Assembly (NCBI GenBank): GCA_015064735.1
Contig: SVRP01000015.1
Coordinates: 1-48,278, forward strand
DNA: 48,278 nucleotides
Source: Oscillospiraceae bacterium
GTDB taxonomy: Bacteria; Bacillota; Clostridia; Oscillospirales; CAG-272
Reading direction: 5' to 3'
The position numbers and the translations under genes were made by a program. Under the pieces are notes generated by a model. The model was not told the origin of the DNA. It saw only the letters and a list, made by a program, of their open reading frames with translations, and ran no database searches. This document shows, piece by piece, positions 6,708-32,343 of the stretch (positions within the stretch are counted from its first letter, which is position 1; each line of letters begins with the position of its first letter).

Positions 6708-7730
6708 TTACGGCATAAAAATAACATTTGGAGCCGAGATTTTATCGCGACAATCCTTTATCGCGATTATAGCATCTAACGGCACCTTAATTCCAAACGG
6801 TTCAAAAAGAAGCTCCCCGCAAAAATCAATGCATATCATTCCATTAGAATACATTAAACTTAGCTCATTTTTTAATTCATATCCCTCATATGTAGCTGGT
6901 CCGTCTTCTTCCAACCCCAATTCGTCTTTATATTCAATGATTTCCCTGGTCAAAAAATCAGCCACAGGTTTTGCCGCTTCTTCAAGTATGATATCAAGAT
7001 GTTGTTTATCTTCATCGCTGAAATTACCGTACACATATTTTTGAGAAAAAACAATATACTGCAAATTACCGTCAAAACCAACATTTAACCTTATAAAATC
7101 ATTAGTTTGTAGCCCCGATACGAATTTGGTATAGACAACCGAGTAATAGGTTTCGTTTTGTATTACTTGAGGCGTGTACGCTTCCAAATTCAGATTTTCG
7201 GTATGAGCCGTCAAGTATTCATAGCAAGCACGCTGTACGGCGGCTTTATCGTTTAGGTTGTCGGTTAATATTTTGGGTTGCAAATTTCCGAAGGAAATCG
7301 AGAAAATATTGTCGTTTATATCGGAATAGTACACAGTAACACCGTATTCTTCGTTTTTATACATATTACTCGGAAAAAGATTTTCTGTACAGAAATAGCT
7401 TTCGACATAGTCGAGGGATATAATTGTATTGTTTAACAAAAGAGTTTTTTGGGTGTCAGCTGTTTGAGAAATATATTTTTTTGCTTCATATTTGTCCTCA
7501 TACATTCCTTCACAATCAATGTAGCCTGAATATAAATCGTCATAAAGAGTCAACTGATAAATACCGTTAAGCTTCATTTCCTTATACTTCAAAGGAAGGC
7601 TTTCGTAATATTCGTCTAAATTTACATTTTTTATTTCTGCTTCTGGTATAGACTTGGGAGAACATGAGGCAATTGATATAATCAAAATGCTAAAAACAAT
7701 TAGATATGGAATGAATTTTATCTTTTTCAT
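6708..7730 (-). CDS. Predicted lipoprotein, function unknown (340 aa)
   Basis: The N-terminus is a lipoprotein signal: MKKIK, a hydrophobic core (FIPYLIVFSILIISI), then lipobox IASC, with Cys23 as the lipidation site. The mature part is acidic and has no recognised domain; it contains alternating short strands and aromatic residues (EYGVTVYYSDINDNIFSISFGN, YYSVVYTKF). AGGAGAG lies ahead of the ATG. Upstream are a possible 31-aa reading frame and then leader module A, the likely source of its transcript. The protein should be anchored to the outer face of the membrane. Its A/T-rich codon use differs from neighbouring housekeeping genes and suggests accessory origin. Confidence 0.8.
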   Translation of the reverse strand: MKKIKFIPYLIVFSILIISIASCSPKSIPEAEIKNVNLDEYYESLPLKYKEMKLNGIYQLTLYDDLYSGYIDCEGMYEDKYEAKKYISQTADTQKTLLLNNTIISLDYVESYFCTENLFPSNMYKNEEYGVTVYYSDINDNIFSISFGNLQPKILTDNLNDKAAVQRACYEYLTAHTENLNLEAYTPQVIQNETYYSVVYTKFVSGLQTNDFIRLNVGFDGNLQYIVFSQKYVYGNFSDEDKQHLDIILEEAAKPVADFLTREIIEYKDELGLEEDGPATYEGYELKNELSLMYSNGMICIDFCGELLFEPFGIKVPLDAIIAIKDCRDKISAPNVIFMP

Positions 7731-7757: not shown

Positions 7758-7853
7758 TCAAGTCGCACCATATACAACGCATACGGAGTCTATATTTAGT
7801 TCTTCAACGGCATTTTCAACCGCATAGTCTTTTGTTTCATAACTTTTTCTCAT
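7758..7853 (-). CDS. Possible 31-aa leader peptide or short ORF
   Basis: An ATG-to-TGA frame (MRKSYETKDYAVENAVEEL, ending in VCVVYGAT) lies between leader module A and the lipoprotein start. The ribosome-binding site is poor (AAAGAGA directly abutting the ATG). The frame starts exactly where similarity between modules A and B ends. It could be a translated leader, the remnant of a longer gene, or chance. Confidence 0.3.
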   Translation of the reverse strand: MRKSYETKDYAVENAVEELNIDSVCVVYGAT

Positions 7854-7878
7854 TTCTCTTTGAAAAATGTCTTGATAT

Positions 7879-8017
7879 AAAAAAGCACATAGATCCCCAT
7901 GCTCGAATCTATGCGCTTTGCGTACTGTTTGAAGATTTTATATATCCCCGCTCGGCGCATTTCCGTCGGGCGTTCTTTTTACAATCCTATTATACCATAT
8001 TTTTCCTATACTGTCAA
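7879..8017 (-). promoter_or_regulatory. Promoter plus structured leader, module copy A
   Basis: On the minus strand there is a consensus promoter: TTGACA (8012-8017), 17 bp, TATAAT (7989-7994). The roughly 104-nt leader then forms a G/C hairpin (CCCG-A-CGG ... CCG-AG-CGGG), an A/U-rich linker, and an 11-bp stem (AGCGCAUAGAU with AUCUAUGUGCU) followed by six U (7879-7918). This second stem is an intrinsic terminator ahead of the lipoprotein gene. The layout is that of a transcription attenuator, or else of a short independent RNA. The 219-bp segment 7853-8071 is about 97% identical to 8797-9015, and a diverged copy is at 31445-31638. A loop UGCGC could pair with GCGCA in the terminator's 5' arm. 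Confidence 0.7.
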
Positions 8018-8043
8018 GAGGTGATTTTGCGACAATATACGAC

Positions 8044-8071
8044 ACGAGCGGTCTCGTTTGAGACCGCTCGT
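8044..8071 (-). terminator. Perfect hairpin terminator of the 231-aa lipoprotein gene
   Basis: A perfect 12-bp stem (ACGAGCGGTCTC/GAGACCGCTCGT) with a GTTT loop lies 18 bp after the stop codon of the gene at 8089 and immediately before the promoter of module A. Confidence 0.65.
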
Positions 8072-8088
8072 CAGTCTGTCGAAACATT

Positions 8089-8784
8089 CTATTTCGTGAT
8101 TTCACCAAAAACAGTCTCCAACGCTTGCAAAGCTGTGTCGGTATTGAGCAGTTTTCCGACAAACGTTGATTCTGTCAGCGGATAGCCCGAAAGAAGCATC
8201 GATCCACACAGAGTATAATTGATATTTTGTGCTTTCCACGAAATCGAAAGAAGTTTTCCGGAAACATAGCGATACTCTATATTATCGGACACATAGGCGC
8301 CACTACTTTCGTCTGACAGCAAGCGCATATCCATTTCGTTCACACCTAAAATAGAACTTGATGTTGATAAAGTCTCATCACAATGATCAACGTATAATGT
8401 AATTTCTACCCCATTGGAATCAATAAGCGAATACATATACGACGAATAATCGTTTCTATAGGCATCACTTAAAAAAACCAATCCGTAAAAAGTCCCTATA
8501 GCTTCAATCTTATCATATGATACGAAATCAGCTGGCATCTCGTTTGAATTCAAAAAATCTGTGTACTCGGCTTCCGATTCGATTGTCAAAAGTTCAACCT
8601 CTATCTCAATAATAGTATCAGATTCTTCAGTGATATCCTGTCCTTCTGTTTTCTCTGTATTATTTTTCGCATACGTTTCTGTCGAATTGTTCTGATTAAC
8701 TTCATCAAGTGCATTCATATCGCAGGCACATATTGCCAAGCACAAGGAACATAACAAGAGAATAGCTGTAAACTTCTTTTTCAT
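8089..8784 (-). CDS. Predicted lipoprotein, function unknown (231 aa)
   Basis: The signal peptide MKKKFTAILLLCSLCLAICAC has a lipobox ending at Cys21. A low-complexity Asn/Thr/Glu spacer of about 40 residues follows, then a folded region starting ELLTIESEAEYTDFLNSNEM. I place the start at 8784, where AAAGGAG precedes the ATG. A longer in-frame extension would run back through the leader terminator and is not credible. A SEAEYTDFLNSNEMP stretch resembles SEESEYREFIQTHDM in the lipoprotein at 31663, so the two may be distant relatives; that is a visual comparison only. It is transcribed from leader module B. Confidence 0.78.
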   Translation of the reverse strand: MKKKFTAILLLCSLCLAICACDMNALDEVNQNNSTETYAKNNTEKTEGQDITEESDTIIEIEVELLTIESEAEYTDFLNSNEMPADFVSYDKIEAIGTFYGLVFLSDAYRNDYSSYMYSLIDSNGVEITLYVDHCDETLSTSSSILGVNEMDMRLLSDESSGAYVSDNIEYRYVSGKLLSISWKAQNINYTLCGSMLLSGYPLTESTFVGKLLNTDTALQALETVFGEITK

Positions 8785-8822
8785 TTCGTTTTCTCCTTTC
8801 TCTTTGAAAAATGTCTTGATAT

Positions 8823-8961
8823 AAAAAAGCACATAGATCCCCATGCTCGAATCTATGCGCTTTGCGTACTGTTTGAAGATTTTATATATCCCCGCTCGGC
8901 GCATTTCCGTCGGACGTTTCTTTTACAGTCTCATTATACCATATTTTTCCTATACTGTCAA
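8823..8961 (-). promoter_or_regulatory. Promoter plus structured leader, module copy B
   Basis: The same organisation as copy A, offset by exactly 944 bp and with no net insertion or deletion: TTGACA (8956-8961), 17 bp, TATAAT (8933-8938), G/C hairpin, then terminator stem with U-tract (8823-8862). About seven substitutions separate A and B across 219 bp; they fall in the start of the transcript and promoter flanks, not in the two stems. It is followed at 38 bp by the lipoprotein start at 8784. Confidence 0.7.
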
Positions 8962-8987
8962 GAGGTGATTTTGCGACAACATACGAC

Positions 8988-9015
8988 ACGAGCGGTCTCG
9001 TTTGAGACCGCTCGT
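8988..9015 (-). terminator. Perfect hairpin terminator after fucO
   Basis: Identical in sequence to the hairpin at 8044-8071 (12-bp stem, GTTT loop). It lies 25 bp after the fucO stop codon and just before the promoter of module B. Confidence 0.65.
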
Positions 9016-19484: not shown

Positions 19485-19993
19485 CGGGAATCTCGCCTGC
19501 GCGAGAATACCCTCGCCCTGCGCCTGACAAGCGAGCTTGTCGATCTTCGGGCGGGGTATGCGAACCCATTTCTGCGCTTTGCGCAGAAGATGAGGGGTGC
19601 CTCTTTCCTTTAATATCTCGGGAATCTCGCCTACGCGAGAATACCCTCGCCCTGCGCCTGACAAGCGAGCTTGTCGATCTTCGGGCGGGGTATGCGAACC
19701 CATTTCTGCGCTTTGCGCAGAAGATGAGGGGTGCCTCTTTCCTTTGATATTTCGGGAATCTCGCCTACGCGAGAATACCCTCGCCCTGCGCCTGACAAGC
19801 GAGCTTGTCGATCTTCGGGCGGGGTATGCGAACCCATTTCTGCGCTTTGCGCAGAAGATGAGGGGTGCCTCTTTCCTTTGATATTTCGGGAATCTCGCCT
19901 ACGCGAGAATACCCTCGCCCTGCGCCTGACAAGCGAGCTTGTCGATCTTCGGGCGGGGTATGCGAACCCATTTCTGCGCTTTGCGCAGAAGAT
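19485..19993. repeat. Tandem array of a 134-bp hairpin-rich unit, four copies (last one partial)
   Basis: Copies begin at 19485, 19619, 19753 and 19887; three are full 134-bp units and the fourth stops at about 19993. The units are nearly identical. Each contains three compact palindromes: TCTCGC-CTAC-GCGAGA, GACAAGC-GA-GCTTGTC and TTCTGCGC-TTT-GCGCAGAA. The second sits inside a larger stem (ATACCC-T-CGCCC with GGGCGGGGTAT). The array lies between the fic promoter and the tRNA-Arg terminator. A 13-bp match to the tRNA T-arm (CGCAACGGGAATC) occurs at 19480-19492 and again inside the tRNA at 20055-20067. Reading frames across the array are artefacts of the repeat period and are not called. Confidence 0.9.
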
Positions 19994-20013
19994 GGGTTCG
20001 CGGGCGGGTACCC

Positions 20014-20047: not shown

Positions 20048-20122
20048 TGGCACCCGCAACGGGAATCGAACCCATAACTAACCCTTAGGAGGGGTTTATT
20101 ATATCCATTTAACTATGCAGGC
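20048..20122 (-). tRNA. tRNA-Arg (anticodon CCT)
   Basis: The 75-nt minus-strand sequence folds as a cloverleaf. The acceptor is GCCTGCA/TGCGGGT, with a G-U pair at 1-72, discriminator G and encoded CCA. The D-stem is GTTA/TAAT and the anticodon stem is AACCC/GGGTT. The loop CTCCTAA gives anticodon CCT, which reads AGG arginine codons. The T-arm is ATGGG-TTCGATT-CCCGT. A perfect terminator follows directly. Confidence 0.92.
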
Positions 20123-20822: not shown

Positions 20823-20860
20823 AAAAATATCGGTTGCGCATATGCGCAACCGATATTTTT
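20823..20860. terminator. Bidirectional perfect hairpin terminator
   Basis: A long palindrome (ATATCGGTTGCGCA and its complement) flanked by A and T runs. It separates the convergent VanZ-like gene and the esterase gene and has a U-tract on both strands. Confidence 0.85.
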
Positions 20861-22049
20861 ATTTTGTGTCGGTCCAGCCTGCTCCGTTTGGATCGGTCTG
20901 TGTTATCGTATTCCAAAGTTCGTCATCCTGATCATTCCAGCTTGAGAGACAATTGCGTAAAATCGCATTTCCTATGTCCTTTCCTATGCTTATCATATCA
21001 TTCTGATTCCAATGATATGTGTCCGCACCTACTACAACGCACTTATCATTTTCGAACTCCCACACATTTATAGCATATTTTGAATTGTCTATAACGTAGC
21101 AATTTTCTATAATGCCCGTAAGCCTTTTCTGCATATCTATAAACGGTTGGTTGATAGCGTCTCCCGTCTTATCCCCTGCGCTTAACGCAAAGGTCTTTGA
21201 AATGGTCCCAACAAATACGGGCATACTTGATGCGCCGCTATCATCGTTACTTTCGTTTATAAATCGCATCATATCCGAAAGGTCTCCTCTTATATCTTTG
21301 ACCCAAGTCGGAAATACCCTTTCGTAGTTATTTGGCTCTCCTCTGTCATTTTCTCCCTGCATCCAATAAAGTCCCTTTATTTTTATATCGGTATAGCCTT
21401 TTTTCTTTAAAGCAAGAATATTGGATGAAACCTCCAAAAGAAGATCGCGATAGAGCTGTCCCGTAACATCACCGTCCTCGTAGCCAAGTCCAAGCTCTTC
21501 AGCATACGAGGGAGATACCCAGTTGCCGAACTGATTGCTTCCTGTAGACTTATCAAAAAGACTTGTGCCACCGTGTGCGAATTTAATAATTCCGGCTTCC
21601 TTCCCCGTATTCTTGTTGTAATATGACGAAAGAACCTCCGCCATACCAAGCTCAGGGCCTATATATCCTCCCTGTCTGCCAAGTCCCACCGTAACATTTT
21701 GCCAATCAACGTCGTTATCTATAATGTATCGGACGCTACTTACTACGGTATCCGTCCGCGCGTTGCCCGCATAGTATATATTCGAGTATCCCTTCACCAC
21801 ACCGGGCACTCCCGACGCAATAGTCTCCATATCGTTTATCTTACTATGCCCCACAGCATTGGACTGACCGGCTATAATATAAATGTCTATGGATTTTTCA
21901 TTCGTATCCGTATTTCCTCCATCCCCATTGTCGATGCTTTCGGTATCACCGCTTGGTGTACTATCCGTATTTACTGTCCGCGAAGAATCACCGCACGAGG
22001 TAAGAGCAACAGAAACCAATATTAACATGACTGCTATTATCCTTTTCAT
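20859..22049 (-). CDS. Sialate O-acetylesterase-like SGNH hydrolase, lipoprotein
   Basis: 396 aa. Signal peptide MKRIIAVMLILVSVALTSC with lipobox LTSC (Cys19), then a low-complexity Ser/Thr/Asp/Gly spacer of about 35 residues. The catalytic domain opens with IYIIAGQSNAVGHSK, whose Ser is the nucleophile of the SASA (sialate O-acetylesterase) branch of SGNH hydrolases. It continues with LYWMQGENDRG and ends with DTYHWNQNDMISIGKDIGNAI, which supplies the Asp-x-x-His pair. Such enzymes remove acetyl esters from sialic acids or plant polysaccharides. The substrate cannot be chosen here, but surface anchoring suggests glycans outside the cell. It is the last gene of an operon with the 45-aa peptide and the 903-aa secreted protein. 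Confidence 0.87.
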   Translation of the reverse strand: MKRIIAVMLILVSVALTSCGDSSRTVNTDSTPSGDTESIDNGDGGNTDTNEKSIDIYIIAGQSNAVGHSKINDMETIASGVPGVVKGYSNIYYAGNARTDTVVSSVRYIIDNDVDWQNVTVGLGRQGGYIGPELGMAEVLSSYYNKNTGKEAGIIKFAHGGTSLFDKSTGSNQFGNWVSPSYAEELGLGYEDGDVTGQLYRDLLLEVSSNILALKKKGYTDIKIKGLYWMQGENDRGEPNNYERVFPTWVKDIRGDLSDMMRFINESNDDSGASSMPVFVGTISKTFALSAGDKTGDAINQPFIDMQKRLTGIIENCYVIDNSKYAINVWEFENDKCVVVGADTYHWNQNDMISIGKDIGNAILRNCLSSWNDQDDELWNTITQTDPNGAGWTDTK

Positions 22050-31438: not shown

Positions 31439-31444
31439 AAAATA

Positions 31445-31480
31445 ACGGTCTGTCTCAAAATTTCGTTTGAGGCAGACCGT
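31445..31480 (+). terminator. Hairpin after rpe, upstream edge of module C
   Basis: ACGGTCTG pairs with CAGACCGT, and an inner CTCAAA/TTTGAG stem extends it after one mismatch. It lies seven bases after the rpe stop and 27 bp before the promoter of module C, the same position as the hairpins beside modules A and B. The U-tract is weak. Confidence 0.6.
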
Positions 31481-31507
31481 TGTCATATATTGTCGCAAAA
31501 TCACACC

Positions 31508-31638
31508 TTGACAGTCTCGGAAAAATATGGTATAATAGGACTGTAAAAAGAACGCCCGACGGAAATGCGCCGAGCGGGGGAAATAAAACGGTACGCAAAG
31601 CGCATAGACTCGTTCATAGGGGGTCTATGTGCTTTTTT
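31508..31638 (+). promoter_or_regulatory. Promoter plus structured leader, module copy C
   Basis: TTGACA (31508-31513), 17 bp, TATAAT (31531-31536), then a leader homologous to copies A and B on the opposite strand. The first hairpin (31555-31578, CCCG-A-CGG...CCG-AG-CGGG) is unchanged. The linker is about 9 nt shorter. The terminator stem (31599-31633) closes with C-G (AGCGCAUAGAC with GUCUAUGUGCU) where A and B have U-A, a compensatory change, and six U follow. A GGAGG ribosome site and the lipoprotein ATG come 25 bp later. Confidence 0.72.
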
Positions 31639-31662: not shown

Positions 31663-32343
31663 ATGAAAAAAATATTTGTTATTATATTGTCTTTATTGCT
31701 TTGTGTTACGGTAATATCCTGCCAGAAAGCAGAAAACAAGCAGACCGATTTCTCCGAAAACGCAACTCAGAGCACGGAGTCATCGGATTCTTCCCAAAGC
31801 ACTGACATGATATTTATTGGTCCTATTATTCCCATTGCAAAGATAGATAATATAAATGAATTAAAAAGAATACTTGAACTGTCAGAAGAAAGTGAAGAAA
31901 GCGAATACAGGGAGTTTATCCAAACACATGATATGCTTACTCCTCGGTTTAATCAAACGATAGCTCAAAAATTCTATTCATATATCCAACAGGACGGCAT
32001 GCCACTTGTTAACGGTAAAGCGGAAGAATATGAATTAAGCGTAGAGATTTGTGAAGAATACCCTAACACTTTGATTATGGTTTATAATACAAGTGGAGTC
32101 AAATATAGTTTTAGTTGCAAATACGGTGAAGCATCTGACTTCAATGAACCGGAAGGTCCCCCTGTTGTCGAAAACATTATATTTGACGGACATACCTTTA
32201 ATTTATATAAAATAGGAGAACGACGCTACCATGGACGTTTTGTTGTCGGATCTATGATATTGAACTTTAGTGTTTTTGCTGATAATATAAGCGATATATC
32301 TTTTGATTATTTCTATATAGGTTCTTTAACTGATATAAAATAG
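31663..32343 (+). CDS. Predicted lipoprotein, function unknown (226 aa)
   Basis: Signal peptide MKKIFVIILSLLLCVTVISC with lipobox VISC (Cys20), followed by a Ser/Thr/Gln/Asp-rich spacer of about 30 residues, then an acidic folded region (NINELKRILELSEESEESEY). AAAGGAGG precedes the ATG. It is the third lipoprotein directly downstream of the same leader module. The SEESEYREFIQTHDM stretch and the late GSMIL string recall SEAEYTDFLNSNEMP and GSMLL in the lipoprotein at 8089, hinting at distant homology. No named domain is recognised. Confidence 0.8.
   Translation: MKKIFVIILSLLLCVTVISCQKAENKQTDFSENATQSTESSDSSQSTDMIFIGPIIPIAKIDNINELKRILELSEESEESEYREFIQTHDMLTPRFNQTIAQKFYSYIQQDGMPLVNGKAEEYELSVEICEEYPNTLIMVYNTSGVKYSFSCKYGEASDFNEPEGPPVVENIIFDGHTFNLYKIGERRYHGRFVVGSMILNFSVFADNISDISFDYFYIGSLTDIK

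What the first reader, a model, noticed from the sequence alone, without database searches (positions are those of the whole stretch)
7853..9015. Three-copy promoter/leader/terminator module placed ahead of lipoprotein genes: candidate undescribed cis-regulatory RNA
Seen: 7853-8071 and 8797-9015 (minus) are about 97% identical, and a diverged copy lies at 31445-31638 (plus). Each has an upstream hairpin, TTGACA-17-TATAAT, a G/C hairpin (CCCG-A-CGG ... CCG-AG-CGGG), an A/U linker, then an 11-bp terminator stem with six U. Each is followed by a ribosome site and a predicted lipoprotein gene. Support for an RNA role: (1) in copy C the terminator's loop-closing pair changes U-A to C-G; (2) one pair is G-U only on the transcribed strand; (3) the linker length varies by about 9 nt while stems stay fixed; (4) the hairpin loop UGCGC can pair with GCGCA in the terminator 5' arm, a possible antiterminator. 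Inference: an attenuator or riboswitch-like switch controlling surface lipoproteins. I do not recognise a known riboswitch. A short independent RNA is the alternative.
Basis: partly seen in the sequence, partly recalled or inferred. Interest (0 to 1): 0.78.

Follow-up and report, generated by a model that had tools for sequence, protein, structure and literature searches.

The report
Repeated RNA leader before export genes
A short stretch of DNA that carries a start signal for RNA and, soon after, a predicted stop signal sits nearly unchanged in front of a set of mostly unrelated genes for exported proteins in two related gut bacteria; it looks like a gene-control element that the RNA library searched does not list, but what it responds to, and whether it responds at all, is unknown.

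Summary
The module is real. A and B are 97% identical; C is a diverged copy. The genome holds six copies, not three; a second species of the genus (G023) holds eleven diverged ones. Among A-E, promoter, hairpin 1 and terminator keep 95-97% identity, start region, linker and outer flanks 58-73%. In B, C, E and F the start codon lies 25-40 nt after the U tract with no second promoter found, so the terminator is in the 5' UTR. Of 15 copies with readable downstream sequence, 14 precede an intact lipoprotein, secreted or membrane-anchored gene and one a lipoprotein fragment. Rfam gives no match. Best reading: a lineage-specific promoter plus transcription attenuator. Against a classic riboswitch: only two species were found to carry it. 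The proposed AUGCGC/GCGCAU antiterminator is near chance and not shared with G023. Termination, switching and signal are untested.

The parts
7989..8017 (-). copy A promoter, TTGACA-17-TATAAT
   Evidence: 12 of 12 consensus
7950..7971 (-). copy A hairpin 1 (GC-C-CG-A-CG ... CG-C-CG-A-GC)
   Evidence: sequence; fold; cross-species pair counts (A itself is cut off there)
7879..7916 (-). copy A terminator, 10-bp stem with loop UCGAGCAUGGGG, then six U
8044..8071 (-). hairpin upstream of promoter A, probably terminator of the preceding gene
6708..7730 (-). lipoprotein gene (ISIASC lipobox), 149 nt after copy A
   Evidence: lipobox read by eye
8933..8961 (-). copy B promoter
   Evidence: 12 of 12 consensus
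8894..8915 (-). copy B hairpin 1 (one C-G to U-G change in the outer stem)
8823..8860 (-). copy B terminator
8988..9015 (-). hairpin upstream of promoter B
8089..8784 (-). lipoprotein gene (LAICAC lipobox), start codon 39 nt after copy B
   Evidence: lipobox read by eye
31508..31536 (+). copy C promoter
   Evidence: 12 of 12 consensus
31554..31575 (+). copy C hairpin 1
31600..31638 (+). copy C terminator, loop-closing pair C-G, six U
   Evidence: not listed by the scan because its loop is too long for it
31442..31483 (+). hairpin after the preceding gene, upstream of promoter C
31663..32343 (+). lipoprotein gene (VTVISC lipobox), start codon 25 nt after the U tract
   Evidence: lipobox read by eye

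Best explanation
It is a lineage-specific promoter-plus-attenuator cassette. A promoter with both full-consensus hexamers starts an RNA of about 90-110 nt. The RNA folds a small 5' hairpin and then an intrinsic terminator that lies in the 5' UTR of an exported-protein gene, so many transcripts should stop there, and the gene is expressed when RNA polymerase reads through. How much reads through is most likely set by the 5' hairpin and the conserved terminator loop, which could touch each other or bind something. Shown: anatomy, conservation pattern, pairing support for hairpin 1, terminator-like hairpin in the 5' UTR, gene association. Inferred: transcription, termination and read-through, and the role of hairpin and loop. 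Unknown: the signal.
For: Start codon 25-40 nt after the U tract in B, C, E and F, with no promoter-like site of 9 or more of 12 between. Among A-E promoter, P1 and terminator are 95-97% identical, start region and linker 72-73%, outer flanks 58-59% (the 19 bases before the -35 box are also kept, 91%). Hairpin 1: 2 of 7 pairs with changes on both sides; whole structure 95.5% of 265 cells paired, 23 both-sided cells against 7.7 in shuffles, 20-63% paired when slid by 1-3 columns. Terminator loop: UCG in 17 of 17 copies and GGG in 16 of 17; abnormal loop conservation was one of the clues that led to the HMP-PP riboswitch (PMC6478431, passages). 14 of 15 readable copies precede an intact exported or anchored protein gene and the 15th a lipoprotein fragment. 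In G023, CGACAA of hairpin 1 can instead pair with UUGUCG at the terminator apex; strict pairs reached by 3.45% (g1), 2.9% (g4) and 1.0% (g11) of shuffles.
Against: Two species only. The alternative pairing differs between the two species and is near chance here; with G-U pairs allowed it is at chance in g1 (26%) and g4 (17%) as well, though not in g11 (0.05%). The number of pairs with both-sided changes (5) does not exceed shuffles (4.8), and the alignment was fitted to a structure drawn from G023. One hairpin-1 position is not a standard pair in 9 of 15 rows, and F pairs badly in this alignment. Copies D and g6 keep the RNA although the gene start is lost. In g1, g4, g9 and g10 the gene starts 302-550 nt downstream, and weak 9-of-12 promoter-like sites lie between in these, in g2 and in D. 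Three of eleven G023 copies (g2, g3, g8) have only four U. On the opposite strand hairpin 1 plus the A run scores as a terminator, another possible reason for its conservation. No expression data.
Confidence: 0.55

Rival explanations
1. A fixed attenuator: promoter and leader were copied along with export-gene starts, and the terminator only sets a constant low read-through. No signal is sensed.
For: A and E share even the start of a signal-peptide gene behind the module, and D keeps a piece of it without the ATG. Distribution is narrow. The AUGCGC/GCGCAU pairing is near chance.
Against: Loop and hairpin-1 sequence conservation between two diverged species is more than a fixed terminator needs.
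Confidence: 0.2
2. A stand-alone multi-copy small RNA (own promoter, own terminator) acting in trans, lying near export genes through co-duplication.
For: Complete transcription unit; RNA kept where the gene start is lost (D, g6); genes 302-550 nt away in g1, g4, g9 and g10.
Against: In B, C, E and F no other promoter-like site lies before the start codon, so the gene seems to depend on read-through. No anti-Shine-Dalgarno stretch (CCUCC, UCUCC or UCCUU) in any of the 17 RNAs.
Confidence: 0.12
3. An antitoxin-like RNA of a type I toxin-antitoxin pair, or a relic of one: the same layout of promoter, hairpin and terminator occurs in a group of RNAs that meet a small hydrophobic ORF head-on.
For: The L052, L160 and L168 RNAs have that layout, CCGA...CGAG in the first hairpin, and a convergent hydrophobic ORF ending near the terminator. 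In g7 a 21-codon hydrophobic ORF with a ribosome-site-like stretch faces the RNA.
Against: The shared CCGA...CGAG was imposed by the search pattern. R1 and R2 do not recognise that group beyond one weak R2 match (L055, 13.8 bits, E 0.95). Facing ORFs of 18-70 codons with 11 or more of 18 hydrophobic residues occur in 6 of 17 copies (A, E, F, g3, g7, g11), only E and g7 with a ribosome-site-like stretch, and they are unlike each other; the g10 counterpart of the g7 frame has no stop.
Confidence: 0.05
4. A non-functional interspersed repeat.
For: Multi-copy, lineage-bound; A and B share a sharply bounded unit with unrelated genes behind.
Against: Mosaic conservation with drifting linker and flanks, paired changes, and constant orientation toward export genes.
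Confidence: 0.06

Closest known systems
Guanidine-IV riboswitch and its orphan variant Gd4v
   Same: Two hairpins, the second a terminator; highly conserved loop bases; a proposed contact between the hairpins; short transcriptional leader (PMC7736828 passages, PMC9788692 parts 1-2 of 6 and passages, PMC11611296 passages).
   Different: No relevant Rfam match at E up to 10 for the copies given (whether Rfam 15 holds these classes was not checked). Genes are exported proteins, not sugE, MATE, GNAT or transaminase. Found in two species of one genus, not several phyla.
HMP-PP (thiS) riboswitch
   Same: A terminator whose loop is conserved and which overlaps the regulatory part (PMC6478431 passages).
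   Different: No Rfam match; different genes; much narrower distribution; there a single terminator hairpin refolds.
Type I antitoxin-like RNAs (L052, L160, L168 group)
   Same: Promoter, first hairpin, terminator, similar size.
   Different: No conserved facing hydrophobic ORF; models do not recognise each other.
Mycoplasma variable surface lipoprotein gene families (recalled, no call)
   Same: Shared promoter region and signal sequence before variable surface protein bodies.
   Different: There variation is by recombination; no cassette switching was looked for or seen here, and a terminator lies in the leader.

Membership tests
Guanidine-IV / Gd4v riboswitch | match to a covariance model in Rfam | tested here: inconclusive
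   No match at gathering and no relevant one at E up to 10 (copy B, 10 copies), but presence of these classes in Rfam 15 was not verified. The tRNAs of the window were found.
Guanidine-IV / Gd4v riboswitch | two hairpins linked by a pseudoknot, second hairpin a terminator | tested here: inconclusive
   Two hairpins met. A contact is possible in G023 (strict pairs, 1.0-3.45% of shuffles) but near chance in this genome, and in g1 and g4 with G-U pairs allowed.
Guanidine-IV / Gd4v riboswitch | gene context sugE, MATE, GNAT, transaminase | tested here: not met
   14 of 15 readable copies precede exported or anchored proteins, one a lipoprotein fragment; no such family among the 16 proteins scanned.
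Guanidine-IV / Gd4v riboswitch | guanidine or other ligand binding | not testable with these tools
   needs in-line probing
Transcription attenuator leader | intrinsic terminator in the 5' UTR between the promoter and its gene | tested here: met
   By sequence only: B, C, E, F have the start codon 25-40 nt after the U tract and no promoter-like site between.
Transcription attenuator leader | conserved competing antiterminator | tested here: inconclusive
   not the same pairing in the two species
Transcription attenuator leader | regulated read-through | not testable with these tools
   needs transcript mapping
Leader-peptide attenuator | conserved translated leader ORF with ribosome site | tested here: not met
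   The AUG in the hairpin loop opens a frame in B, F and, by eye, A, C and E, but no ribosome site precedes it, F's peptide differs, and hairpin 1 of the CAACACG-type G023 copies has no AUG.
Type I antitoxin RNA | facing small hydrophobic ORF, conserved between copies | tested here: not met
   Facing ORFs of 18-70 codons starting with ATG, 11 or more of 18 hydrophobic, within 350 nt: 6 of 17 copies, unlike each other; only E and g7 with a ribosome-site-like stretch.

The most novel reading that the evidence does not exclude
A new, recently evolved RNA switch, restricted to one genus, in which a 5' hairpin kisses the loop of a 5'-UTR terminator to control a whole set of mostly non-homologous exported proteins from one copied cassette, sensing an unknown envelope or gut signal.
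Probability: 0.2. Interest if true: 0.68.

Novelty: new variant of a known kind. Interest (0 to 1): 0.42.

Why it matters
Riboswitch-type attenuators are mostly tied to one pathway and spread across many species (general knowledge). Here one attenuator-like leader has been copied in front of many mostly unrelated exported-protein genes in two species. If it works as read, it would show how a bacterium can put a set of surface proteins under one RNA-level control by duplicating a cassette. The 17 copies are natural variants for testing what the terminator loop does.

Tried and rejected
Leader peptide starting in the hairpin loop: rejected (no ribosome site, not conserved). Riboswitch of a class in Rfam: no match (the E-up-to-10 lists held only matches far below gathering score, such as trpB 17.8 bits against 59).

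Broad distribution: besides the copies, 45 weak matches of R1 and R2 were read; 3 of 45 have a promoter-like site of 10 or more of 12 nearby and none looked like the module by eye. R2 over a class sample gave 0 of 391 genomes at E 1e-4, but the own copies did not pass either, so this empty answer is weak. The family pattern search had matches in 42 of 395 genomes; only this genome (6), G023 (10) and G176 (1) show the module, the rest judged by eye from the listed letters. Viral contigs: 37 stretches by the same pattern, none the module. Plasmids and phages: no blastn match.

A general search for promoter-terminator leaders before ATGAARAA: 9 matches in 7 of 30 genus genomes; F, L255 and L259 are terminator leaders before lipoproteins, L262 and L263 look like preQ1-type leaders, 4 were judged not to be leaders. 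In the family 54 of 395 genomes matched; 33 loci in all were read, 6 flagged lipoprotein by a crude rule, 2 of them without a terminator found; L287 adds a secreted protein. This is a small sample without a baseline.

Homology to the antitoxin-like group: not supported. G176 holds one copy on a contig of near-equal length and at the same coordinates as G023:C20, probably the same contig in another sheep-rectum bin, and is not counted.

Papers: PMC9788692 parts 1-2 of 6 and passages; PMC7736828, PMC11611296, PMC6478431 and PMC11477304 passages; all others only as listings. That no such leader is described rests only on the searches in an open-licence library, and on Rfam.

Full report
The observation. 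Copies A (7853-8071) and B (8797-9015) on the minus strand and C (31445-31638) on the plus strand are as described: 97% identity for A and B, 86% over 160 bases for C. Each has a promoter with 12 of 12 consensus bases, a G/C hairpin, a linker and a terminator-like hairpin with six U. The genome has three more copies: D (contig C9), E (C27) and F (C4, diverged); model R1 finds the same six and two further matches at E 0.5-0.7 that are not copies. A genus search with R1 over 30 genomes gave convincing matches only here and in one other species, G023. Model R2, made from six G023 copies, found eleven copies there, named g1 to g11 here (L026, L039, L041, L042, L043, L044, L045, L046, L047, L048, L049). 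Contig lengths tie G023 to the record set RGIG6407, a sheep rectum MAG.

What is conserved. Among A-E, mean identity is 97% for the promoter, 97% for hairpin 1 and 95% for the terminator, against 72% for the start region, 73% for the linker, 58% further upstream and 59% downstream; the 19 bases before the -35 box are also kept, 91%. Across the two species the kept parts, by eye, are the promoter hexamers with 17 spacing, CCGA...YCG of hairpin 1, an A-rich linker, the terminator stem and its loop, UCG in 17 of 17 and GGG in 16 of 17 copies (g10 has GAG). U runs are six in this genome's copies and in g11, five in seven G023 copies and four in g2, g3 and g8.

Structure. Alignment A7 (17 copies, 16 distinct rows; A and B are cut off before hairpin 1, so they do not count there) gives 95.5% of 265 cells paired and 23 cells with changes on both sides against 7.7 in shuffles; sliding the partners by 1-3 columns drops the pairing to 20-63%. 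Hairpin 1 has two pairs with changes on both sides (U-A/G-C/G-U and A-U/G-C), one position that is not a standard pair in 9 of 15 rows, and F badly paired at two positions. Limits: the number of pairs with both-sided changes (5) and of further pair types (10) do not exceed shuffles (4.8, 9.5), the alignment was fitted to a structure drawn from G023, and the copies represent few independent lineages. The terminator must pair in any case, so its changes say little. On the opposite strand, hairpin 1 followed by the T run scores as a terminator, so its conservation could have that reason too.

The antiterminator. AUGCGC in the loop can pair with GCGCAU in the terminator arm in A-E and less well in F. 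Shuffles reach this in 14.7% (A), 4.2% (E), 16.5% (C) and 49.8% (F) of cases. In G023 a different pairing is possible, CGACAA of hairpin 1 with UUGUCG at the terminator apex: 3.45% (g1), 2.9% (g4), 1.0% (g11). With G-U pairs allowed the figures are 42% (A), 16% (E), 21% (C), 84% (F), 26% (g1), 17% (g4) and 0.05% (g11, 13 bp). Eight leaders were tested, uncorrected (all). So a contact between hairpin 1 and terminator is plausible in G023, best in g11, and unproven here.

Gene context. Of 17 copies, two (g5, g8) end at contig ends. The remaining 15 point toward an exported or anchored protein: eleven intact lipoproteins (A, B, C, D, F, g2, g3, g4, g9, g10, g11), two secreted proteins (E, g7), one with an N-terminal membrane segment (g1), and in g6 a lipoprotein fragment without its start, the next intact gene there being a regulator-like one (lipoboxes read by eye, no signal-peptide program). 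For g1, g4 and g9 I passed over ORFs in repeat-like stretches, and for g7 and g10 over a 23-codon ORF; D's lipoprotein lies behind a signal-peptide remnant. By my reading, one other gene in this window (20859-22049) looks like a lipoprotein; no genome-wide baseline was made. The copies are not independent, because A-E are recent duplicates; F, the main G023 group and g11 are more distant and keep the association. The protein bodies are mostly unrelated: Pfam above its cut-off gives only a ricin-type lectin domain (g7) and a phosphoesterase (g9) among the 16 proteins scanned, and blastp links some bodies, mainly g2, g3, g10 and the second gene behind D.

Cis position. In B, C, E and F the start codon lies 39, 25, 40 and 31 nt after the U tract, and no promoter-like site of 9 or more of 12 lies between; the same holds for A (149 nt), g3 (57), g7 (179) and g11 (65). 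Sites of 9 of 12 do occur in D, g1, g2, g4, g9 and g10. The anatomy puts the terminator inside the 5' UTR, which favours attenuation over a stand-alone RNA, although the RNA may do both.

Distribution. Besides G023, no copy was found in the 30 genus genomes, the family samples (295 with R2, 395 with the promoter-hairpin pattern; one further copy in G176 is probably a G023 contig) or the order sample with R1 (394, four chance matches). The class sample with R2 (391) is a weak test. Large samples use stricter filters that lose weak matches. Plasmids and phages gave none by blastn; viral contigs gave none by pattern.

An antitoxin-like rival. The same pattern found RNAs of similar layout (L052, L160, L168) that face a small hydrophobic ORF; R1 and R2 do not recognise them and Rfam has no match. 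Among our copies only g7 has a convincing facing ORF (21 codons), whose g10 counterpart has no stop. I keep this at 0.05.

Verdict. A real, multi-copy, lineage-specific leader, most likely a transcription attenuator copied before genes of exported proteins (0.55). A fixed attenuator without sensing (0.2) and a small RNA (0.12) remain. In anatomy it works most like the terminator-based leaders of the guanidine-IV or HMP-PP kind, but membership in either is not shown, and the guanidine-IV gene context is not met.

Noticed in passing
L052, L160, L168 (also L055, L097): Antitoxin-like RNAs: promoter, hairpin, terminator whose 5' arm matches the hairpin loop (GACGGUU type), with a facing small hydrophobic ORF in L052, L160 and L168; none listed in L055, a less hydrophobic one in L097. 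No Rfam match.
   Followed up: partly
L045 (g7), opposite strand, just after the RNA's terminator: A 21-codon hydrophobic ORF (MVCLWLLL...) with a ribosome-site-like stretch faces the RNA; the same frame in L048 (g10) has no stop.
   Followed up: partly
L255 (G006) and L259 (G020): Unrelated promoter-terminator leaders before lipoprotein genes in the same genus; in L255 a 5' segment AGGUAAU matches the terminator loop AUUACCU, reached by 7% of shuffles.
   Followed up: partly
L262, L263 and G210:C47:11432-11583: Leaders that look like preQ1-I riboswitches, two of them before a QueT-like gene (names recalled); L262 and L263 are not reported by Rfam at gathering score.
   Followed up: partly
window 7949-7972, 8896-8913 (+) and 31553-31576 (-): Hairpin 1 read on the opposite strand, with its A run as a T run, scores as a terminator.
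   Followed up: no
G108, G046, G193 (genus g18): Repeated promoter followed by ATCGAGTCGCGCCGAGG, seven places in three genomes; not this module.
   Followed up: no
window 19485-19994: Tandem array of a 134-base unit, 3.8 copies, 99% matches, beside the tRNA at 20051-20122.
   Followed up: partly
L045 and L048, about 35 nt after the RNA: A 23-codon ORF (MITRHNRSHKHT... / MIIRHNSSHKYT...) kept between two G023 copies.
   Followed up: no
L027 (G176:C142) and L043 (G023:C20): Same local coordinates and the same module sequence in two sheep-rectum MAGs, probably one contig binned twice.
   Followed up: no
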